Shown: positions 4,423 to 42,670 of the stretch, piece by piece
Numbering within the stretch: the first letter of the stretch is position 1
Layout of the letters: every line of letters starts with the position of its first letter
Source: a virus
IMG/VR virus record: IMGVR_UViG_3300009034_000079
Coordinates: 1-44,016 of that record
DNA length: 44,016 nucleotides
Direction: 5' to 3' (one strand)
Notes under the pieces: model-generated
Seen by the model: the letters and a program-made list of their open reading frames with translations, nothing else
The model's database searches: none
What the model was told of the DNA's origin: nothing
Position numbers and translations under genes: made by a program

Positions 4423-5921
4423 TGGACATTCACAGCGACTACATACCCAACGAGAAGCAGGTCCTAGCTCACTGTGCTGAGGAGCAGTTCATCCTCTACG
4501 GCGGCGCAATGGGCGGAGGGAAGTCTAGGTTCTTGTGCGAGGCTGGGAAGCAGCTCTCTACAGACTTCCCAGGGAATTTCGGGGTTATAGCAAGGCAGAG
4601 TGGTCCTGCTCTCAAGCTCTCTACAATGGAGGTTTTCTTCGATGAGGTACTCATTCCCGGTTCGAAGGAGTGGAGGGGGCTGGGTTGCGTCTTTAACAAA
4701 GCAGAAGGGCTTCTTACACTTACAGCTCTGGACCCCCCTTCCAAGATTTGGTTTACGGGTCTTGACGCTGATAACGTTGAGCGGATCAAGTCTCTCAACT
4801 TGGGGTTTTTCTGTATTGACGAGGCGACGGAAGTCAGCGAGGGAATTTTCCTTATGTTTGTTACTCGCCTCCGTAGAAAGGGCGTTCCGAGGATCAGCAG
4901 AAAGGGCCTTCTCAGCGCGAACCCCGAGGCTGGGTGGATCAAGCGGAGATTCGTAGATCAGAAGCTGTCCAACCACCTCTTCATAAGTGCCAACTACAAA
5001 GACAATTTTGCGCTTCCTGAGGATTACCCAGAACTCTTTGTCACGTTTCCGCAAAGGTGGAGGGACAAGTACCTCGATGGGAGATGGGAAGCTGCGAGTG
5101 GCATGATCTACAAGGAATTCGACCCGAACTTTCATATTATTCCACATAGAGAGCTGCCGCCGGAATGGAAGAGGGTTAACGGTCTCGACCACGGCCAGCA
5201 GAACCCGACTGCCTTTCTGAGGGCTGCTGCTGGCCTTTCAGACAGAATTCAGCTTGAACAGATCCTTGGCGAGGATAGAGTAGAGAAGATGGACCCGCTC
5301 TACGACCACTACCCTGTTATTGTCTGTAACAGGCTTTATTACTCTCCCGGCCTCGTGAGTGACCATAGGAAGGGGATTCATAAGACCTTTGGGTTGGGAG
5401 AGAAGCCTGGTCCTATCTATGCTGATCCGAGGATCTGGGACAGGGACAGGTCGAGGAAGATTGTGGTAGAGGCGGGGAAGAACAGGGAGGTCCAGTACAG
5501 TATCGCCGACGAGTACAAGGAAGAGCCCTATGCGGTGAAGGGTATTACTAGGGCGAATAATCAGGTAAATGTTGGTATAGACAGGGTGGCCACGCTGCTT
5601 TTGATGGGCCACCTCTTCTTCATGGATCATCCCTCGATGGAGCCCCTCGTAGGGGAGGCCGGGGAAATCAGGAACTATGCCTGGAAGGAGCCAGCGAGGG
5701 AGGAAGACGATTGGCCGGAAGAGCCAATCAAGAGGAACGATCACGGCTGTGACGGACTCCGCTATCTGGTGATGAGCTTCCCTGCTCCGAAGCCAAAAGG
5801 CAAAGTCATTCCCTACAATACCTTTGAAGCTGCTAGGAAGAGGGCTATAAAATGGAGGAAGTCTGGGAACTACGACAGGGAGGCAATCATCCATAAAGGG
5901 AGATTGATTCACTTGAGATGA
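4422..5921 (+). CDS. terL: terminase large subunit (packaging ATPase/nuclease)
   Basis: 499 aa. The N-terminal ATPase has a Walker A motif GGAMGGGKS (about residues 27-35), a Walker B motif FFCIDEATEV (about 130-139) and a coupling motif LLSANPE. The C-terminal RNase-H-like nuclease shows acidic motifs GLDHG, IYADPRIWDRD and DHGCDGLRYL. It drives DNA into the prohead and cuts the concatemer. The start ATG overlaps the previous stop (TGATG), with AGGAAG upstream; a TTG three bases earlier is less likely. The next gene starts inside its stop codon (ATGA). Confidence 0.95.
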   Translation: MDIHSDYIPNEKQVLAHCAEEQFILYGGAMGGGKSRFLCEAGKQLSTDFPGNFGVIARQSGPALKLSTMEVFFDEVLIPGSKEWRGLGCVFNKAEGLLTLTALDPPSKIWFTGLDADNVERIKSLNLGFFCIDEATEVSEGIFLMFVTRLRRKGVPRISRKGLLSANPEAGWIKRRFVDQKLSNHLFISANYKDNFALPEDYPELFVTFPQRWRDKYLDGRWEAASGMIYKEFDPNFHIIPHRELPPEWKRVNGLDHGQQNPTAFLRAAAGLSDRIQLEQILGEDRVEKMDPLYDHYPVIVCNRLYYSPGLVSDHRKGIHKTFGLGEKPGPIYADPRIWDRDRSRKIVVEAGKNREVQYSIADEYKEEPYAVKGITRANNQVNVGIDRVATLLLMGHLFFMDHPSMEPLVGEAGEIRNYAWKEPAREEDDWPEEPIKRNDHGCDGLRYLVMSFPAPKPKGKVIPYNTFEAARKRAIKWRKSGNYDREAIIHKGRLIHLR

Positions 5922-14940: not shown

Positions 14941-15429
14941 ATGCAGGAGAGTGGGAGAGAAAAGGTGTTCCTTCCTGGTGAGGGGAAAGGGAGGGGGACA
15001 GAGAAGAGACTCCACAAGAAGTTTATGTTTGTAAGGTGTAGCTATCCAGAGTGCTTCGCTATACTAACGAAGGAAAATAAGGATAAGGGCGGTTGCGAGT
15101 GCGGCCTCAATAAATTCAGGGGGGTCCCACTCGGAGCTGGTAAGATAACTCCGGAGGAAGAGAAGCTTTTCGAGCTCGGCCTCGTGCACTTGATCCAGGC
15201 CGATATGGTCCCGCCAGACCCCGACCTTCTCAACATCGACAACGAGAAATACTGGGGGAGAGTGAACAGGGAACATGGGAGGCAGCGGTCGAGGGCGAGG
15301 AAACGTAAGGCTGAGAAGAAGAGGGGGGAGCTCGAGAAGTGGCTCAAAGAGCAGGAGAGGATCAGTGGACTCAACATTGAAGAAATCGTCGCAGAAGCGA
15401 CGAGTCCTGATAGGGATAGTCGCCTTTGA
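14941..15429 (+). CDS. hypothetical zinc-binding-like protein, 162 aa
   Basis: Preceded by CAGGAGAG. A Cys cluster (CSYPECFAIL, then CECG) near residues 33-55 may bind zinc, like the N-terminal part of many small phage zinc proteins. The C-terminal half is highly charged and helical (RSRARKRKAEKKRGELEKWLKEQE split around 118-141). The last 65 bases overlap the next gene in a different frame. Unknown family. Confidence 0.75.
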   Translation: MQESGREKVFLPGEGKGRGTEKRLHKKFMFVRCSYPECFAILTKENKDKGGCECGLNKFRGVPLGAGKITPEEEKLFELGLVHLIQADMVPPDPDLLNIDNEKYWGRVNREHGRQRSRARKRKAEKKRGELEKWLKEQERISGLNIEEIVAEATSPDRDSRL

Positions 15430-16759
15430 TGGTATTATTGCCGAGGCGCAGCAAGCTGCTTTGAAGGCGTTCTACACCTTGGGCAAGTATCACTCTGGGG
15501 ACTATGAGTTCTTTTTCGAGATAGAAATGAAGAAGGAGCAGTTCCGAGCGAAGAATCGCCTTACGGTGACCGCGCTGAACCTCAATTGTGAGTTTATGTG
15601 GCAGATAGACGATGACACGGTGCTCAGCCCGAATACGTTTGAGGTGCTTATGAAGATGCTCGACGATGAGCCGGATGCGGGTGTCGCAGGGTGTCTCTAC
15701 CAACACAAGGGGGGTGACGAGCACCCAGTTGTCATGTGGGTGAAGATGACTCCGATAGGGACTTCGGTTGCGGACTACTATCAACCCCACGAGTTGACAG
15801 GCGAGGTTATGGAGGTTGGAGTTACTGGAGGTGGATGCATGCTCTTCCGCATGGCCGCCTTCAAGGACATGATGGAACCATACTTCTGGAACGAAGCGGA
15901 CCTTGGGACTGATGTGCAGATCTGCCTGAGAATGCTCGAGAAAGGTTGGAAGGTCCTCTGCCACACGGGCCACGAGGTTGGACATGTAGGGGAAAGGAAA
16001 GTCTGGTATCCGTCTGTCATAGATCCAGAAATGGCGGCCATGCACAGATTCAATGAGAAGCTCTACTACGACATGTTAGATTTCTTGGGTGTCCAAAGCG
16101 ATGAGTACTACACCCTTGTCATAAAATCTATGGCAGGGCTCCAGGAGAAGTGGCTTGAGATGAAGCCAGAAACGGCATCTGAGATGAAGGGCGTTTACGA
16201 AGATGACTCCATCCAGGACCTCTCCGTGGCTAGGAATGTTTACTACAACAGCAAAAGGAGGAAGGACTGGGGGCAGTTCACAACCTATGTGAGGGAGGTG
16301 AAGCCTAAGCGCGGACTAGACTTCGGTTGTGGAGTTGGGATAGGGGCCCAGATCATGGCCCAGCATGGGGTGAGCGTGCTGGCGATAGACCTCGACATCA
16401 GGCCTATGGACTTTCTGGAGTGGCGAGCCGAAAGGCATGGATTTGCGGAGAACCTCGAGGTGGTGAGGATGGAAGGAGCAGACGGCAGGGAGTATCTGCC
16501 GGACGAGGTCTTCGATGTTATCGTAGTCAAGGACGTTCTCGAACACCTCACGAATCCTGAGGAAGTTCTGAGAGAGCTTCTCGTGAGACTTAACCTTGGA
16601 GGGTTGATGGTCTGCAATGCACATATAGCAGAGTTCAAGGGGGCGGAAGATGGTCACCCTCAGCATCTAGACTTGCTGGGAGCCGAGCGTTTCGGCGAGG
16701 TGTGCTATGAATACGGCGTCAAGCCGTGGTTTGGATGTCTCTTAAGAAAGGAGGCTTAG
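15365..16759 (+). CDS. glycosyltransferase (GT-A) fused to SAM methyltransferase
   Basis: 464 aa. Residues about 14-230 form a GT2-like domain: RVLIGIVAFDG near the start, a DDD metal-binding triplet (82-84, in WQIDDDTVLSP), GGGCMLFRM and a late acidic patch (NEADLGTDVQICLRML). Residues about 310-440 are a class I methyltransferase: GLDFGCGVGIGAQ binds SAM, then VVKDVLEHLTNPEEVL. The protein probably adds and methylates a sugar. GTG 15365 is chosen because AGGAGAGG precedes it; it overlaps the upstream gene by 65 bases. Substrate is unknown: a virion protein, host surface glycan or DNA base are all possible. Confidence 0.8.
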   Translation: MDSTLKKSSQKRRVLIGIVAFDGIIAEAQQAALKAFYTLGKYHSGDYEFFFEIEMKKEQFRAKNRLTVTALNLNCEFMWQIDDDTVLSPNTFEVLMKMLDDEPDAGVAGCLYQHKGGDEHPVVMWVKMTPIGTSVADYYQPHELTGEVMEVGVTGGGCMLFRMAAFKDMMEPYFWNEADLGTDVQICLRMLEKGWKVLCHTGHEVGHVGERKVWYPSVIDPEMAAMHRFNEKLYYDMLDFLGVQSDEYYTLVIKSMAGLQEKWLEMKPETASEMKGVYEDDSIQDLSVARNVYYNSKRRKDWGQFTTYVREVKPKRGLDFGCGVGIGAQIMAQHGVSVLAIDLDIRPMDFLEWRAERHGFAENLEVVRMEGADGREYLPDEVFDVIVVKDVLEHLTNPEEVLRELLVRLNLGGLMVCNAHIAEFKGAEDGHPQHLDLLGAERFGEVCYEYGVKPWFGCLLRKEA

Positions 16760-16761
16760 AA

Positions 16762-17112
16762 ATGGCAACGAGGAGTACGGTAATCCTGCACAGGTCGATG
16801 TTCTACGATCCTCGCTGGGAAAGGGTGAGGATATTCCCTTTCTACGTTGTGGAAACTAGCTTGGGGACTATGTGGGAGCCAAGATCATTCATGGATCTCC
16901 GAGTGCCTGGTTCCTACAACATCAAGCAGGATGACATTATGTGTCTCGTAGACGAACTCCGCTCTCTCGACGGCAGGGAACAAGACCATATCTTGAATCC
17001 TTCTAATAGAGGGAACGTAGAGTGGATGAAGCTCCACGCGTACAGAGCGAACGATATGTACGAGGGCTATGAGCACTTCGGTGAGCGGAGGGTTGGCGTG
17101 GCAGGAGGCTAG
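16762..17112 (+). CDS. hypothetical protein, 116 aa
   Basis: Start chosen at ATG 16762 with AAGGAGG upstream, three bases after the previous stop. The sequence has beta segments (TVILHRSMFYDPRWERVRIF, FYVVETSLGTMWEPR) and an aromatic-rich end. It is not recognised. Tight packing between a sugar-transferase fusion and a sulfotransferase-like gene suggests it belongs to the same modification cassette. Confidence 0.7.
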   Translation: MATRSTVILHRSMFYDPRWERVRIFPFYVVETSLGTMWEPRSFMDLRVPGSYNIKQDDIMCLVDELRSLDGREQDHILNPSNRGNVEWMKLHAYRANDMYEGYEHFGERRVGVAGG

Positions 17113-17113
17113 C

Positions 17114-17761
17114 ATGATCTGGGGGATAGGGGCTGGCAGATGTGGCACAGCCACTTATGCCTTCGAGAACGGTGGGCTCCACGAGCCCTACCCGCTCATT
17201 GTAGAAGAGGCGGCCAGGTACTGGAGAGGGGAGAGGAGTCCTGAGCTGCTACAGAGGTTGGAACACAGACTCAGGGCGAGGCTGTGGGCCCCAGTAGACC
17301 TTGTAGTCGATCTCAAGCAAAGTCTTGTGATCCCGGCGATCTGTGAACTCGACCCCCAGGCTGAATTCATATGGCTTCTTAGAGACCCGGAGTCGAGTGT
17401 GAGGAGCATGCTCTCTATACGCTACTACAACCCGGACCCCTCTTGGCCGCTCGCCGTGCAGCGCGCAGAGCAGTGGAGAATCCGGCCATCGACGAGATTC
17501 TGGGATGATTGGAGCTTGACGGAGAAGTGCTGTTGGTATTGGCTAGAGATGAACAAGGCCTGTGATGTGGGGCTCGCGGACACCGGGGCTCCCTTCAGGG
17601 TCGTGGACGTAGAGAGCCTAGGACCGAAGAAGTGGAACCCAGGGATCAAGAGCAATCGCTATACACCTATTGAGGGCCCGATTGAAATCTGGCCGAGGTG
17701 TTGGGAAGCCTATAAGAAGTGGAGGCGGCTCGGGTCTTCGATCCGCGAGGTAGAGGCGTAA
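17114..17761 (+). CDS. sulfotransferase-like P-loop protein
   Basis: 215 aa. The N-terminal GIGAGRCGTATYAF (residues 4-17) matches the 5'-phosphosulfate-binding loop of PAPS-dependent sulfotransferases, and LLRDPESSVRSML (88-100) matches the 3'-phosphate-binding motif, with R90 and S98 at the usual spacing. Such enzymes move sulfate from PAPS to a hydroxyl of a sugar or other acceptor. The start ATG 17114 follows GGAGG. It lies two genes after a sugar transferase and one small gene before an APS-kinase-like gene, so the group may make sulfated glycans. It could be a distant P-loop kinase instead, but the paired motifs are good. Confidence 0.65.
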   Translation: MIWGIGAGRCGTATYAFENGGLHEPYPLIVEEAARYWRGERSPELLQRLEHRLRARLWAPVDLVVDLKQSLVIPAICELDPQAEFIWLLRDPESSVRSMLSIRYYNPDPSWPLAVQRAEQWRIRPSTRFWDDWSLTEKCCWYWLEMNKACDVGLADTGAPFRVVDVESLGPKKWNPGIKSNRYTPIEGPIEIWPRCWEAYKKWRRLGSSIREVEA

Positions 17762-30776: not shown

Positions 30777-31013
30777 TCAGAATTTTGGTGGCGTCGTTGC
30801 CTCGATGTAATTATCGTGCTGTTGGAAATGAAGACAGGTAAGACAACGGAGGAAAGTCGCAATAGCATTGGAAGAAGCACTGCTCCCTGGTTCTGATTTC
30901 CTCCTTTCCATCGCAACGACAGCTCTATAAGAGGTGACGCTGCTAAGGAGGAAGAACTTCCGGTAGTTGCTGCAGTTATCCTTGTCACAAGGCCACCATA
31001 TCTTCTCAGCCAT
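30777..31013 (-). CDS. small Cys-containing protein, 78 aa
   Basis: Begins at 31013, its ATG overlapping the polymerase stop region, with GGAGGGGATG upstream. CDKDNC near the start and CLTC near residue 57-60 may bind zinc. Basic middle. No family recognised. Confidence 0.6.
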   Translation of the reverse strand: MAEKIWWPCDKDNCSNYRKFFLLSSVTSYRAVVAMERRKSEPGSSASSNAIATFLRCLTCLHFQQHDNYIEATTPPKF

Positions 31014-33427
31014 TACATCCCCTCCATCTCCCCCCAGTTCTCTCCCACTTTAAAGTCCACAGGGATTGTAAGCTCGCGCCCGTTCACCTGGTGAGAGATC
31101 GTCATCAGCTCCCTCATCATGGGGATGAGCCGCTGTACGTCACTCGGGTCAGCCTGCACAACAACTTCGTCGTGAATGTTGAGCAGAATCTCGCAGATCC
31201 TCTCTTGACACTCAAGGATACTGTGGATCTCCCGAATTGATATACAAAGTAATTCCCCCACGGTAGACTGAGGGACGAAAGCAATTGCTTTTCTATACAG
31301 ATCTGGTCCTCTTCTCCCATAAAAGATTCTCTTTCTCCCCAGCGGGGTAACGAGGGTTCTATCCGTGTCTATCTTCGCTTTCACCTGCCTCTTCCAGCCC
31401 TCGATCATCGGCCTCTTCATACGTATCTTCGCCAAGACATTCACACATTCCGAGTATTCAAAGTCGAAACCCTCTTTGAGGAGGCGGCTTTGCAGCTGGC
31501 GGGGGCCTATTTCATAGTTGTATCCATACTTCATGTGCTTCGCTGGTTGTCTCACCTCCTTCCCGAAGAGCTTCCTCACATCGTTAGGGTCTGTGTCCGG
31601 AGGCACGAGTCCGAGGTCCACAGCACTGATCCCGTGAATGTCGTCCCCTCTTAGAAAGGCTTCGATCTCCGCCTTCTCGTTGGCGAGCCAGGCTACTTCC
31701 CTGGCTTCAGCCTGACTAAAATCTGCGGAGATGAGGACTTTTCCTGGATCTGCAATGAATAGTTTACGAATCTCTGCTCCCTCCTCTCCACGGACTGGGA
31801 TATTTTGTAGATTGCCACCCCCTCCGAAAGGTGACTCAGAACTAGAGAGTCTCCAAGTTGTAGTTCCAGCTGGATTGTAGGTAGTGTGAAATCTTCCATC
31901 TTTGCTCACCTCCATTTCTACGTTAGTGGAAAGAAGCTTGAGAAATTTCCTCCTTCGACGGATCAGTTCTATCACAGGGTTAGTTGGGTGCAACCTCTTC
32001 AGGCGAAGGAGGGCCGCATCCTCCGTTGTAAGCTTCCCTCCTTTGTACTGCGGGGTGAGGCCCATGTCGACGTAGAGAAGTTGAACAAGATCCTTCGTGT
32101 AGGCTGTTGATACCTGATAAGAGCGGCCCATCAGCTTTTCGATCTCGACCGAGCACTCCTCTGCCCCTCTTGAGAAGAGTACACGAAGCTCCTCCCTCTT
32201 CTCCATGTCACATTTGACTCCACGGATGGTCATAGCGAGAAGGCTTGGATAGTATGACATGGACCGCTTGTACCCTTCCCACATGCCCAGTTGGCGACAA
32301 TCCTGTGAGATGATAGGCCATGCCTCGCGAGGGACGCAAACGTCTTTACCGTTGTAAATCGAGAGAGCGTGATCTCCAATCCTCTTCCCCCAAAGCTTAC
32401 CATCGTCCTTATAGTAAGGTTCCCACGTGTAAGACGAAGCGATGAAGTCGAGACCCTTAGGTAGGTGTGGGTAGGTGGCATGATGGCAAACCATAGTGTC
32501 ATCGACAGTGCCTTGCGCACACCGAAGGCCCCAAAATTTCCCCAGAATAGGTAAGTCATACATACCTCCTTGGAAGTTCTTCTGAACATCGTCGCGGAGG
32601 AAGAGCTCGGAGAGTGCAAAGAGGATTCTTCCGAACTCGCCTGCCGTCCAGTAAGGTCTTCCTTCCCAAATGAAGGGAATTGAGATGGCACTGACAGCGA
32701 GAGGGTCCCAGCAAAGGCCGAGCCTAGTGATAAGAGGGCCGGGAGGCCTCGTTTCAATGTCAACGGTACAGGTAGAACCACTTGGAATTTCTGAGATGAA
32801 GCGGATGACCTCGGTAAGAGTTTGCGGCAGAGTGATGTTGCGGTTAGGAGTAGGAAACATTGGCGTCAAACTCTGTTCTTTCACCCTTTGAAAGTCCCGG
32901 ATCGAGATCGGCAGAAGGTTCATCGCCTTCTTTTCGCTCTTTCTCTGCCCCTTTTCTTGAAGATGTTTCCTCACGTATTCTGGGTGATAGGTGCAGTAGA
33001 CCTTTAAACCAGGTGCTAGGACGCATGGCAGTAAACTTCCTCTCCACTTCGTTATCCTCCTCTTCCCCGCAAGAACCCACATGGCCTCGGCTCCAAGGGC
33101 CACTACTACATTAGGACGGTGTTCCTCGAGAAGCCTTCGAAGCCTCTCTACGTGTTGGGCTCCAAGGTCGTTGAGATATTGTTTCTTGGTATCTATGTAG
33201 AAGAAACCCGTATCGTCGCGAGGGGGTCTTTCTTCGAATAGGTTCTCCAGGCGAACCTCTGCTCGAAGGAGGCCGACTTGTCGGAGGACGAGGTCAAGGA
33301 GGCCACCCGCTCCTCTTGGATTAGCGAAGGGATGACCGGCCTTTATCTCCTCACGAGAAGGGGCCATGCCCACGAACCAGAGATCAGAATCAAGAGGGCC
33401 GCTCCCCTTTACAAGTACTTTGGTCAC
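31013..33427 (-). CDS. DNA polymerase I (family A) with N-terminal uracil-DNA-glycosylase-like domain
   Basis: 804 aa. Residues about 12-155 resemble family 4-type uracil-DNA glycosylase: FVGMAPSREEIKAGHPFANP, a NLFEERPP motif and YHPEYV. The 3'-5' exonuclease follows: DIETRPP (D223, E225), NFQGGMYDLPIL, and a later acidic site in DHALSIYNGKDV. The polymerase has motif A DFSQAEAREV, motif B (R626, K630, Y634) and motif C IHDEV (about 751-755). Tyr at the position of E. coli Phe762 would lower discrimination against dideoxynucleotides. It is the replication polymerase of this phage. A GTG start follows GGGAGGAG. A glycosylase-like N-terminal domain is known in the SPO1 polymerase. Confidence 0.9.
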   Translation of the reverse strand: MTKVLVKGSGPLDSDLWFVGMAPSREEIKAGHPFANPRGAGGLLDLVLRQVGLLRAEVRLENLFEERPPRDDTGFFYIDTKKQYLNDLGAQHVERLRRLLEEHRPNVVVALGAEAMWVLAGKRRITKWRGSLLPCVLAPGLKVYCTYHPEYVRKHLQEKGQRKSEKKAMNLLPISIRDFQRVKEQSLTPMFPTPNRNITLPQTLTEVIRFISEIPSGSTCTVDIETRPPGPLITRLGLCWDPLAVSAISIPFIWEGRPYWTAGEFGRILFALSELFLRDDVQKNFQGGMYDLPILGKFWGLRCAQGTVDDTMVCHHATYPHLPKGLDFIASSYTWEPYYKDDGKLWGKRIGDHALSIYNGKDVCVPREAWPIISQDCRQLGMWEGYKRSMSYYPSLLAMTIRGVKCDMEKREELRVLFSRGAEECSVEIEKLMGRSYQVSTAYTKDLVQLLYVDMGLTPQYKGGKLTTEDAALLRLKRLHPTNPVIELIRRRRKFLKLLSTNVEMEVSKDGRFHTTYNPAGTTTWRLSSSESPFGGGGNLQNIPVRGEEGAEIRKLFIADPGKVLISADFSQAEAREVAWLANEKAEIEAFLRGDDIHGISAVDLGLVPPDTDPNDVRKLFGKEVRQPAKHMKYGYNYEIGPRQLQSRLLKEGFDFEYSECVNVLAKIRMKRPMIEGWKRQVKAKIDTDRTLVTPLGRKRIFYGRRGPDLYRKAIAFVPQSTVGELLCISIREIHSILECQERICEILLNIHDEVVVQADPSDVQRLIPMMRELMTISHQVNGRELTIPVDFKVGENWGEMEGM

Positions 33428-40288: not shown

Positions 40289-40825
40289 CTAAAAGCTGTA
40301 CCTCACTGATAGCGAGGGCACTTGAAAGACCTTGACGTTGTCCCAGACGTAGAGGAACATACCTTCAAGTGACCAGTTCTTGTCGATCTCATAGGCGATC
40401 CCGCCTCCAACCAAGGTACAGGCGTTGGTCCCGTCAGAGAAGTTAGCCCCAATCCCTAGCATTGCGAAGGGCCTGAGGTGCTCAGTCAAACGAACGCCGG
40501 GCTTGGCGTAAACGGCTGCAATGCTGGAATCTACTGAGCTCCGCCCCTGTCCGGGAGGGTTCTCCCGCCTTTTGTAGTGGGAGGATATACAGAGAACGCC
40601 CACATTCGCATCCCATCTGTCATTTTCATAGAAGTGATCTTCAACCGAAACTGAGAAGTGCCAGCCCCTGTCGAGGCCATAGCTGCTTGAGTAGCTGTGC
40701 GGAGCCACCTGCCCGCCTCCGAGTGAGAACGAGGACCCACAAGCCTGGCCTGCGAAGATCCAAGGAATTGTAAGGCCGAGGGCCAGGCCGACGACCATCC
40801 AGAAGACTCTTCTGATTGTCTTCAT
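40289..40825 (-). CDS. phage-encoded outer-membrane beta-barrel protein
   Basis: 178 aa. A Sec signal peptide (basic MKTIRR, hydrophobic FWMVVGLALGLTIPWIF, cleavage after AGQA near residue 28) precedes amphipathic beta strands (YGLDRGWHFSVSVEDHFYE, SSIAAVYAKPGVRL, LRPFAMLGIGANF, WSLEGMFLYVW). It ends with VRYSF, a terminal Phe being the usual outer-membrane insertion signal. The size matches eight-stranded barrels such as Lom/OmpX. It could alter the host surface during infection, for example to block other phages, and it shows that the host is diderm. Confidence 0.7.
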   Translation of the reverse strand: MKTIRRVFWMVVGLALGLTIPWIFAGQACGSSFSLGGGQVAPHSYSSSYGLDRGWHFSVSVEDHFYENDRWDANVGVLCISSHYKRRENPPGQGRSSVDSSIAAVYAKPGVRLTEHLRPFAMLGIGANFSDGTNACTLVGGGIAYEIDKNWSLEGMFLYVWDNVKVFQVPSLSVRYSF

Positions 40826-41319
40826 TTCCTCCCTCCCGTTGCCAGTTTCTGCAGTTCATGTAGGGAGGTATAGCTCCCGCCCTTCTCGTTCACAAGTTTG
40901 TTGATCCTCAGCTTGAGCTTGTCCAGCTGTTCACCAAGCTGCCTGTTCACCTCGACGAGTCTCACCTGGTCCTCTTTACACTCGCGAAGCTCCGCTGCGA
41001 GGACTTTAATTTGGTCTGCTTGCACTCGAATGATGCGTAGGATACTCTTTCCGAGTTGGGCATCTGTGAAGTGACCCGGTGGCACCTTTTCCGGGGTACT
41101 CTCCCGCCTTATGTCTTTGAAGGTCCAAAGGGTTCTGTTCCTTCGGCGTGTATCATGTCTGTTGATGCTATCGGTCCTGCACATGTTTTGCAGTCCAGTT
41201 TGGATCTGCCTTGCCGTGAAGCCTTCTGCCCTTGCCAACACGTCTTCGAAGGTGAATAGCTCAGGCAAGTCCTTCCTCACGGTCTCCATCATTTTTAGGA
41301 AATCTGTTCGTCTTGCCAT
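40822..41319 (-). CDS. hypothetical protein, HTH-like N-terminus and coiled coil, 165 aa
   Basis: The N-terminal 70 residues (FTFEDVLARAEGFTARQIQTG, then NRHDTRRRNRTLW) look like a winged helix-turn-helix; the C-terminal part (residues 100-150) is a strong coiled coil (LAAELRECKEDQVRLVEV). A small DNA-binding regulator is plausible. It overlaps the next and previous genes. GGAGGAAGG precedes the ATG. Confidence 0.6.
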   Translation of the reverse strand: MARRTDFLKMMETVRKDLPELFTFEDVLARAEGFTARQIQTGLQNMCRTDSINRHDTRRRNRTLWTFKDIRRESTPEKVPPGHFTDAQLGKSILRIIRVQADQIKVLAAELRECKEDQVRLVEVNRQLGEQLDKLKLRINKLVNEKGGSYTSLHELQKLATGGRK

Positions 41320-41464
41320 TTCCTTCCTCCTCTCCTCCGAGGTCCCACGCCCACCACAGAGTACACGGGATGCACCAAAAGAGGCCCGACGGCCTCCTGA
41401 CCATGTATTCTATACTGCGGGCGTTGTGGCAGCCTCGGCGTTGGCACTTGATCACTAGGCCCAT
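41261..41464 (-). CDS. zinc-ribbon protein, 67 aa
   Basis: GGGAGGTCAAG before the ATG. C7, C12 and the CIPC pair (about 31-34) make a four-Cys site; the tail is charged. It is the first gene after the RNA region and its terminator. Overlaps the next gene by 59 bases. Confidence 0.6.
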   Translation of the reverse strand: MGLVIKCQRRGCHNARSIEYMVRRPSGLFWCIPCTLWWAWDLGGEEEGNGKTNRFPKNDGDREEGLA

Positions 41465-41494
41465 CTTGACCTCCCTTCTATAGCTAGAAGGTGG

Positions 41495-41515
41495 AAAAAG
41501 GGGAGCCCCCTCCCC
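41495..41515 (-). terminator. rho-independent terminator of the leftward RNA
   Basis: On the minus strand GGGGAG (41515-41510) pairs with CTCCCC (41505-41500) around a short G loop, followed by five T (41499-41495). It ends the leftward transcript of the structured RNA before gene 41261-41464. Confidence 0.75.
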
Positions 41516-41610
41516 ATCGTAGCTCTTAGCCGTGGCGTCCGACGAGTCAGGGGCTCCTTGGACCCTGCTGCTCTTGCCCTTTTACTTTGAACGGTGTTGT
41601 TAAGGAGTAT

Positions 41611-41706
41611 GCCAGCGACTTTACCCTTTGTCCACGTTCCCCCCGTAAAGACCCTTCTGGAGATCCTTACGGCGGGAACGCTGGGATTCGAACCCAGGAC
41701 TCTGGC
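41611..41706 (-). ncRNA. circularly permuted tRNA-like RNA
   Basis: Leftward order: anticodon-stem 3' strand GCCAG (41706-41702), variable AGTC (41701-41698), T-arm CTGGG-TTCGAAT-CCCAG (41697-41681), acceptor 3' strand CGTTCCC (41680-41674), G73-like base, a hairpin linker (41672-41642), acceptor 5' strand GGGAACG (41641-41635), TG (positions 8-9), D-arm GAC-AAAGGGTAAA-GTC (41632-41617), G26, anticodon-stem 5' strand CTGGC (41615-41611). Acceptor (7/7), anticodon (5/5), T (5/5) and D (3/3) stems are all perfectly paired, and U8, A14, GG and the T-loop signature are present. The order is permuted, and the anticodon loop is split, so the anticodon cannot be read. No CCA is encoded. Confidence 0.6.
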
Positions 41707-41730
41707 TCCATCCGTCCAGGGTAGGCATTG

Positions 41731-41765
41731 TGCACAGCAGTCGTGGTCGTGATGCTGTGGGTGCA
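41731..41765. repeat. hairpin upstream of the permuted tRNA half
   Basis: TGCACAGCA (41731-41739) pairs with TGCTGTGGGTGCA (41753-41765) with a small bulge; the loop holds a tandem GTCGTG. It lies just before the first tRNA half in the transcript and could be part of a larger folded RNA. Confidence 0.5.
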
Positions 41766-41914
41766 TAACACTCAGTCTGATAGGACCTTTTAGGCTGGGG
41801 GTGGCTAAGAGATCCAGAGTCTCTCCCTTCCCCTCCTCATATTTGAGGTTCGCCTGGGCGTCCCTTTTAACAGCAACAACAAGTCTGAGACTACACCCAA
41901 TTTCTTCCATGCTC

Positions 41915-42670
41915 CTATTTCCCTGTGTTGATGTACTCGGAGAGGCGTTTCGCCACCTCCAGGGGCTTCACCTCTACGGTATTCGCCCTTTGCCTCGCCC
42001 TCTTTATCGCTCGGATAAGTTTGTCCAGCCTAACGAGCTTGTCCAGCTTCTCGGCTTGAGGCACTGCTCCCGACCAGACTTCCATAGTAAAAGTTCCTAT
42101 CATCTCGTCCACCGACCACGACTCAATCTGGGCCGGGTGGTCAGGCGTAGCATCATAGAGAACCTTGTGCCTCACTACCTTTTCCGTTTTTCTCTTGACA
42201 GAGGGCCTCACTGCTTTCCAAGCGCCTTCCCTTTTCTGCTCGTCCTTCTCCCACTCCGTGCCCGGAGGGAGGGTGGGGATGGCTTCGTAGACGACTCTGA
42301 GGGCGTTGAGTCTGGTTTCCATACCGAGCAAAAAGGTGGCGGGGAGGCCTTCGAGGAGGGTCTTTTCACCCACTACAATATCCGCTCTCGCTTCCTGGTT
42401 GGCCGATTCCTTCTGGATAAGGGCGTCGTAGTACCTCCCGACCGCGATCCAGACAGCTCCGAGGATTTCCCCTGCCGTAGTAGTAAGTTCCCTGTACTCC
42501 TCTGCCTCCCTTTCTTCCGCTTCCCGTCCCTCTTCGCGCATGTCGAGCCTCTTGTGGATTCCTTCAAAGAGTTCTTTCCTCCTGAAGACCTCCACCGCTT
42601 CGTGGATGACTTTCTTAGTCTCCTTTACGAGGTCCTGCTCGACAGCAAGCAATTCATGCAGTTTCCCCAT
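41915..42670 (-). CDS. DUF7873-like phage protein, 251 aa
   Basis: The start MGKLHELLAVEQDLVKE and the internal ADIVVGEKTLLEGLPATFLL and DKLIRAIKRARQRANTVEV follow a family of uncharacterised phage proteins that begin with KLNELLAVE. They are helical with a beta middle domain. Function unknown. The ATG at 42670 has GGAGGATAC upstream. The gene directly precedes the tRNA-like RNA region. Confidence 0.65.
   Translation of the reverse strand: MGKLHELLAVEQDLVKETKKVIHEAVEVFRRKELFEGIHKRLDMREEGREAEEREAEEYRELTTTAGEILGAVWIAVGRYYDALIQKESANQEARADIVVGEKTLLEGLPATFLLGMETRLNALRVVYEAIPTLPPGTEWEKDEQKREGAWKAVRPSVKRKTEKVVRHKVLYDATPDHPAQIESWSVDEMIGTFTMEVWSGAVPQAEKLDKLVRLDKLIRAIKRARQRANTVEVKPLEVAKRLSEYINTGK

What the first reader, a model, noticed from the sequence alone, without database searches (positions are those of the whole stretch)
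41611..41706. Circularly permuted tRNA-like gene in a phage
All four tRNA helices can be drawn with perfect pairing (acceptor 7 bp, anticodon 5 bp, T 5 bp, D 3 bp), with T-loop TTCGAAT, a GG-containing D-loop and TG at positions 8-9. But the gene order is T-half first, then a linker hairpin, then D-half. The base at 70 pairs as C with G3 and the discriminator is G, so the alanine-tRNA-like G3-U70 and A73 of tmRNA are absent, which argues against a two-piece tmRNA. Permuted tRNA genes are known in some archaea and algae; permuted tmRNA is known in bacteria. A permuted tRNA in a bacterial phage needs an explanation for joining the two halves, such as a permuted self-splicing intron, which I could not recognise in the flanks. 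An attP copy of a host tRNA 3' end is another explanation for the T-half but not for the matching D-half.
Basis: partly seen in the sequence, partly recalled or inferred. Interest (0 to 1): 0.92.

Follow-up and report, generated by a model that had tools for sequence, protein, structure and literature searches.

The report
Phage RNA mimicking a rearranged tRNA
A bacterial-type virus carries a short non-coding stretch whose RNA would fold like a transfer RNA with its halves in swapped order and its amino-acid end sealed by a hairpin; it looks like a tRNA mimic related in design to bacterial Y RNAs rather than a real tRNA that must be cut and rejoined, and similar mimics turn out to be common in phages.

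Summary
On the minus strand, 41706-41611 holds a T-half, a 12-bp linker hairpin and a D-half whose acceptor, anticodon, T and D stems pair 20/20 Watson-Crick. The 96 nt fold exactly this way (z -5.2). A dedicated finder gave 1 hit in 1500 Markov copies of the window. The rejoined halves are called a tRNA by ARAGORN.

The order T arm - closed acceptor arm - D arm is the known design of bacterial Y RNAs (YrlA, Ro60 partners). I found the same layout just upstream of Ro60 (TROVE) genes in four phage contigs, over 100 times in Ro60-less phage loci, and, closed by a GNRA tetraloop, in one of the nearest relatives of this phage. None needs splicing.

Best reading: a stand-alone, non-decoding tRNA mimic with a YrlA-like module. 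I found no Ro60, RNA ligase, RtcB or integrase, no bulge-helix-bulge, no CCA and no tmRNA D-domain; the T-half plus acceptor is absent from 84,980 species genomes, against attP. Strict Y RNA membership is not established. No close homologue of the site was found, so covariation here, expression and partner remain untested. New variant of a known kind.

The parts
41611..41706 (-). whole permuted tRNA-like element (T-half, linker, D-half)
41702..41706 (-). 3' strand of the anticodon-position stem, GCCAG
   Evidence: pairs with 41611-41615
41681..41697 (-). T arm CTGGG-TTCGAAT-CCCAG
41674..41680 (-). acceptor 3' strand CGTTCCC, followed by G (position 73) and CCG, no CCA
41642..41673 (-). 32-nt linker forming a 12-bp hairpin that extends and closes the acceptor arm across one G-G mismatch
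41635..41641 (-). acceptor 5' strand GGGAACG
41617..41632 (-). D arm GAC-AAAGGGTAAA-GTC with GG in the loop; preceded by T8 G9
41611..41615 (-). 5' strand of the anticodon-position stem, CTGGC
41588..41717 (-). possible outer stem GGACGG (41717-41712) with CCGTTC (41594-41589), extended by one U-A pair in the folded RNA; weak, no conservation evidence
   Evidence: fold of 41588-41726
41500..41515 (-). terminator-like hairpin with T tail about 100 nt downstream of the element
   Evidence: 1 found, 0.8 expected by chance
41320..41914 (-). about 595-bp gap between two minus-strand genes; the ORF 41455-41910 inside it has no coding signal (0.00 bits/codon against 0.08-0.40 for the reference genes)
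41915..42670 (-). upstream neighbour gene, DUF7873 (PF25283)
40822..41319 (-). downstream neighbour gene, 165 aa, unknown

Best explanation
The locus encodes a stand-alone structured non-coding RNA that mimics tRNA. Its T arm, acceptor arm and D arm are built in permuted order, and the acceptor arm is sealed by a hairpin, so it has no free CCA end and no intact anticodon loop. It works as one continuous RNA; nothing is spliced. Like the tRNA-like module of YrlA Y RNAs, it probably folds into a tRNA elbow that docks onto host proteins recognising tRNA. For YrlA the literature names TruB, DusA and PNPase (PMC8394870). The helix at the anticodon position would hold the module together or carry a second partner. 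Shown here: sequence, pairing, order, chance level, the same layout next to Ro60 genes in other phages, and the missing splicing parts. Inferred: transcription, tertiary fold, mimicry as the function, and the partner. Because no Ro60 gene is in the record, the partner is either a host Ro60/Rsr or, as I think likelier, a tRNA-handling host enzyme that is titrated or redirected during infection.
For: Isolated 96-nt fold equals the permuted cloverleaf with a continuous 7+12-bp closed acceptor arm. Tertiary-core letters of tRNA are kept (T8, R9, A14, GG in D-loop, TTCGAAT; sequence). Model R1, built from 19 other permuted elements and not from the window, ranks this site first of the window at 21.8 bits, E about 2e-5; next site 7.2 bits. 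The same layout lies 87-252 nt upstream, same strand, of Ro60-family ORFs in four phage contigs. A nearest-relative phage (L009, DNA polymerase 42% identical) has T arm - TACC[GAGA]GGTG - D arm, i.e. a 4-bp acceptor arm capped by a GNRA tetraloop that cannot be a tRNA end; L075 and L226 have the same design. Known YrlA structure: large end stem plus T, acceptor and D arms mimicking tRNA (PMC8394870); Rfam's YrlA model has this order. Relatives also carry non-decoding tRNA-like elements in normal order, e.g. L088:913 whose anticodon hairpin can be drawn as TGGG-ACTT-CCCA.
Against: Rfam YrlA gives no match in the window even at E <= 10; it also misses the gathering score in the Ro60-linked phage loci scanned (L122, L187, L221), so this is weak. 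No TROVE gene in the record. No recognisable Ro60-binding stem; with flanks the predicted fold rearranges. No close homologue of the site was found, so no covariation at this site. The core is good enough to be read as a real tRNA after rejoining. Model R1 also scores ordinary tandem tRNA pairs highly, so its E-value supports the order and pairing, not the function.
Confidence: 0.6

Rival explanations
1. A genuine circularly permuted tRNA gene as in algae and Thermofilum: the ends are joined in the anticodon loop, then RNase P and 3' processing remove the linker. The 7-nt loop would be ATACGGA (anticodon ACG, Arg) or ATATGGA (ATG).
For: All four helices and the tRNA core letters; ARAGORN calls the rejoined sequence a tRNA at 120. 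A second phage contig, L006, rejoins to a tRNA-Asn with anticodon GTT, U33, G73 and encoded CCA.
Against: No bulge-helix-bulge at the junction; bacteria lack the splicing endonuclease (established knowledge); no ligase found among the scanned ORFs; no CCA; a strong linker hairpin seals the acceptor end; two sister bridged elements lack U33 (L128:8142, L149:2391).
Confidence: 0.08
2. A two-piece RNA: the linker is cut out by tRNA-end enzymes, leaving T-half and D-half held by base pairs, as in permuted two-piece tmRNA, perhaps a tag-less tmRNA derivative.
For: Best Rfam matches are beta_tmRNA (21.5 bits, E 1e-4) and tmRNA_permuted (15.8 bits) over T arm and acceptor. 72 permuted tmRNAs without tag are on record (PMC11915505). 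Phages do carry two-piece tmRNA (PMC9004378).
Against: Both far below gathering (84 and 47 bits); the match stops before the D region. A paired D arm, 5-bp anticodon stem, G3-C70 and G73 are tRNA-like, not tmRNA-like. No short tag frame is evident; the frame open across the D-half is the long non-coding ORF 41455-41910.
Confidence: 0.1
3. A bona fide Y RNA (YrlA) that binds a host-encoded Ro60/Rsr through its outer stem.
For: Layout identical to YrlA; Ro60-linked phage Y RNAs have it; a possible outer stem exists.
Against: No Ro60 gene in the record, no shared end-stem motif (neither the GTTACTTC seen in Ro60-linked phages nor ACAGCAA), host unknown.
Confidence: 0.12
4. A relic: captured or rearranged tRNA fragments, such as the interval between two tandem tRNA genes or an attP copy, now without function.
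For: Tandem copies of one tRNA would give T-half then D-half with matching acceptors. Only one window has this exact element.
Against: 20/20 Watson-Crick pairs; no integrase found; T-half+acceptor 23-mer absent from 84,980 species genomes; the 12-bp linker hairpin is not explained.
Confidence: 0.1

Closest known systems
YrlA-type bacterial and phage Y RNAs (Rfam RF02553), partners of Ro60/Rsr
   Same: Order T arm, closed acceptor arm, D arm; enclosing stem at the anticodon position; tRNA mimic without CCA or anticodon loop; found in phages.
   Different: No Ro60 gene in the record; no recognisable Ro60-binding end stem; acceptor arm much longer (7+12 bp); D arm diverged; no Rfam match.
Circularly permuted tRNA genes (Cyanidioschyzon, other algae, Thermofilum pendens)
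   Same: 3'-half, intervening sequence, 5'-half, all cloverleaf helices; break in the anticodon loop.
   Different: No bulge-helix-bulge at the junction, no splicing enzymes, bacterial-type phage, hairpin-sealed linker.
Permuted two-piece tmRNA (RF01849/RF01850/RF01851, merged RF04321)
   Same: T arm and acceptor first, linker, then 5' part; weak covariance match to that half.
   Different: tRNA-like D arm and anticodon stem, no G3-U70, no A73, no tag, below gathering.
T4 RNA C (species 1 RNA)
   Same: Small stable phage RNA with T arm and acceptor-like end, not matched by the tRNA model.
   Different: Canonical order with a long insert; no permutation.

Membership tests
YrlA / bacterial Y RNA | tRNA-like module in the order T arm - closed acceptor arm - D arm | tested here: met
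YrlA / bacterial Y RNA | Ro60/Rsr (TROVE) gene nearby | tested here: not met
   control detects it in Deinobacterium and in 6 of 23 phage contigs
YrlA / bacterial Y RNA | long 5'/3' end stem with Ro60-binding motif | tested here: inconclusive
   only a 6-7-bp candidate stem in the predicted fold; no motif
YrlA / bacterial Y RNA | match to RF02553 | tested here: not met
   but Ro60-linked phage loci scanned also miss the cut-off
Circularly permuted tRNA gene | 3'-half before 5'-half with all cloverleaf helices | tested here: met
Circularly permuted tRNA gene | bulge-helix-bulge at the junction | tested here: not met
Circularly permuted tRNA gene | circular intermediate and mature tRNA | not testable with these tools
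   needs RNA from infected cells
Permuted tmRNA | covariance match at gathering score | tested here: not met
Permuted tmRNA | G3-U70 and A73 | tested here: not met
   G3-C70, G73
attP copy of a host tRNA 3' end | identity to a host tRNA | tested here: not met
   (held species only)
attP copy of a host tRNA 3' end | integrase in the phage | tested here: not met
   no integrase among the ORFs scanned
Permuted group I/II intron-exon construct | intron core in the flanks | tested here: not met
   no intron family at gathering or in relaxed scans

The most novel reading that the evidence does not exclude
Phages carry a broad, Ro60-independent class of permuted, unchargeable tRNA mimics, of which this is a bridged-anticodon-stem variant, used as decoys or sponges for tRNA-targeting enzymes such as anticodon nucleases of host defence. 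A narrower and still bolder reading is that some (this one, L006) are the first permuted tRNA genes of bacterial viruses, matured by RNA circularisation.
Probability: 0.25. Interest if true: 0.85.

Novelty: new variant of a known kind. Interest (0 to 1): 0.55.

Why it matters
It turns an apparent impossibility (a permuted tRNA in a bacterial-type phage) into a testable member of a group of tRNA mimics. It shows that the Y-RNA-like layout exists in phages without Ro60, which suggests a use of tRNA mimicry by phages that does not depend on that protein. Standard annotation tools miss such RNAs: ARAGORN and Rfam gathering cut-offs report nothing here.

Tried and rejected
Close relatives by DUF7873 protein: none in viral contigs. 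blastn of the region against phage records: none. T-half pattern: two contigs, one (L005) an ordinary tRNA-Asn in a tRNA array, the other the useful L006. D-loop-specific pattern: only tRNA arrays. Terminase relative L239 (61%) is a fragment without this region; its R1 hit lacks a T arm. YrlA model on the window: nothing. Protein-coding explanation (ORF 41455-41910): no coding signal. attP: no host match, no integrase found. Group I/II permuted intron: no match. An early idea that the Ro60-less phage elements were all Y RNAs was dropped when Ro60 proved absent from 39 of 40 contigs. MAFFT alignment A2 misaligned acceptor hairpins of some members and was replaced by A3.

Full report
What is there. 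The element lies on the minus strand, 41706 to 41611, inside a gap of about 595 bp between two minus-strand genes: the DUF7873 gene (41915-42670) and a 165-aa gene (40822-41319). The only ORF covering it (41455-41910) has no coding signal: 0.00 bits per codon against 0.08-0.40 for the reference genes. The order is anticodon-stem 3' strand, variable AGTC, T arm, acceptor 3' strand, a 32-nt linker, acceptor 5' strand, TG, D arm, G, anticodon-stem 5' strand. All 20 pairs are Watson-Crick. The 96 nt fold exactly like this, 5.2 standard deviations below shuffles, and the linker makes a 12-bp hairpin stacked on the acceptor stem, so the 'end' of the tRNA is sealed. With flanks the predicted fold keeps this long arm but rearranges the rest; the cloverleaf in context is therefore likely but not proven.

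Chance. A finder requiring T-loop, 5-bp T stem, 7-bp acceptor, T8 and R9, D stem, GG in the D-loop and at least 4 anticodon-stem pairs found this site and none in 100 Markov-1 copies of the window, and one hit in 1500 copies with linkers up to 100 nt. ARAGORN sees no tRNA in the window but calls one, score up to 120, once the halves are put in normal order. In controls 0 of 20000 random 95-mers were called, and 5.9% of constructs in which only the T arm, acceptor and 3' anticodon strand were kept.

What it is not. tmRNA: the best Rfam matches are the T arm plus acceptor of beta_tmRNA (21.5 bits, gathering 84) and tmRNA_permuted (15.8, gathering 47), and they stop before the D region. attP: the 23-mer TGGGTTCGAATCCCAGCGTTCCC does not occur in any of 84,980 bacterial and archaeal species genomes, and no integrase was seen in the Pfam scans. 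Permuted introns: no intron family matched. Permuted tRNA in the algal or archaeal sense: these mature by splicing of a bulge-helix-bulge into a circular intermediate (PMC3978253). No such motif can be drawn here (best central helix 3 of 4 pairs), and no RNA ligase or RtcB was found in the ORFs scanned.

What it resembles. A second permuted element turned up in contig L006, and Rfam matched that one to YrlA, the bacterial Y RNA, below its cut-off (39 bits, E 6e-7). YrlA has a long end stem and a tRNA-like domain mimicking the D, T and acceptor arms. The domain is modified by DusA and TruB, and YrlA bridges Rsr and PNPase (PMC8394870). A tRNA-like domain of YrlA acting as a competitive inhibitor of an anticodon nuclease has been suggested (PMC7790460). 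Y RNAs near Ro60 in phages were reported by Chen et al. 2014 (RNA 20:1715; known to me from its abstract, not held here). A pattern scan of viral contigs returned, besides ordinary tandem tRNA genes, about twenty further permuted T arm - acceptor hairpin - D arm elements that ARAGORN does not call. Six of 23 contigs tested carry a Ro60-family (TROVE) gene above cut-off. In four of them the element lies 87-252 nt upstream of the TROVE-sized ORF on the same strand. In nineteen such elements 98% of pair cells are standard pairs and 12 of 16 pairs show changes on both sides; the acceptor part of this is inflated because my finder required pairing. A covariance model built from these nineteen, without the window, ranks the window element first at 21.8 bits (next 7.2). 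The same model also scores ordinary tandem tRNAs, but the window has no tRNA gene.

The phage and its relatives. The window is a 44,017-bp IMG/VR record with a UDG-DNA polymerase A fusion, terminase and T7-like internal virion protein, and no end repeat. Its nearest polymerase relatives are 39-43% identical. This polymerase family is rich in tRNA-like structures outside called tRNA genes: about 14 GGTTC-type T-arm elements in the fetched relatives, against 5 T arms of a looser type in a similar amount of random sequence. L009, a nearest relative, has T arm - TACC[GAGA]GGTG - D arm, and L075 and L226 have the same design with other GNRA-type loops. A 4-bp acceptor arm capped by a GNRA tetraloop cannot be a tRNA end, so in this lineage the permuted layout is used without being a tRNA. 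Two other bridged elements (L128:8142, L149:2391) lack U33 and could not decode. L006, however, rejoins to a clean tRNA-Asn with encoded CCA, so a true permuted tRNA is not excluded for that one, nor fully for the window.

Most likely working. I infer one continuous, non-coding RNA whose T, D and acceptor arms make a tRNA elbow with a sealed, unchargeable end. It would bind host proteins that recognise tRNA and either divert or recruit them. Ro60 is not encoded in the record. Ro60 is also missing from the L006 contig, the near relatives tested, and 39 of 40 contigs of the large ACAGCAA class. A Ro60-independent role is therefore plausible. Expression, fold and partner are untested.

Limits. 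No close homologue of this exact element was found, so covariation for the window itself is missing. The host is unknown. The Pfam scans covered the larger ORFs, not every small one. 

Noticed in passing
Viral contigs, e.g. L199:2106-2187, L149:2975-3064, L257 (two), L272, L244-L283: Large phage RNA class: outer stem, motif ACAGCAA, partial anticodon arm with real anticodon-like loops (CTTGTAA, CTGTTAA), T arm, 7-8-bp acceptor hairpin, D arm. Possibly undescribed.
   Followed up: partly
L006:1335-1425 (IMGVR_UViG_3300048855_000175): Permuted tRNA-Asn-like element: T-half ending GCCA, 3-nt ATG linker, then the D-half, followed at once by a strong terminator; rejoined anticodon loop CTGTTAA, G73.
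   Followed up: partly
L088:880-1580 (contig G023:27,000-28,100): Chain of tRNA-like elements where each T-half's acceptor pairs with the next D-half (CCCCGCC/GGCGGGG; ATCGC[TAAG]GCGAT), next to two D-arm-less elements.
   Followed up: no
L008:5950-6120, L024:1870-2000 and 5650-5780, L040:3310-3600, L043:500-620, L070:290-400, L015:7840-7905: Canonical-order tRNA-like elements with abnormal or inserted anticodon regions, not called by ARAGORN, several directly upstream of an ORF start.
   Followed up: no
L359:1409-1547 (phage T4 rnaC): T4 RNA C reads as a canonical-order tRNA-like RNA: acceptor ACGGAACG/CGTTTCGT and T arm CCGGG-TTCGAAT-CCCGG with a long abnormal middle, like the elements of the relatives.
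   Followed up: no
window 31013-33427 (-): DNA polymerase A fused to an N-terminal uracil-DNA-glycosylase domain; three other phages have polymerases 29% identical to it.
   Followed up: no
window 15275-16759 and 17069-17761 (+): Glycosyltransferase-methyltransferase fusion and a sulfotransferase-like protein among the late genes.
   Followed up: no
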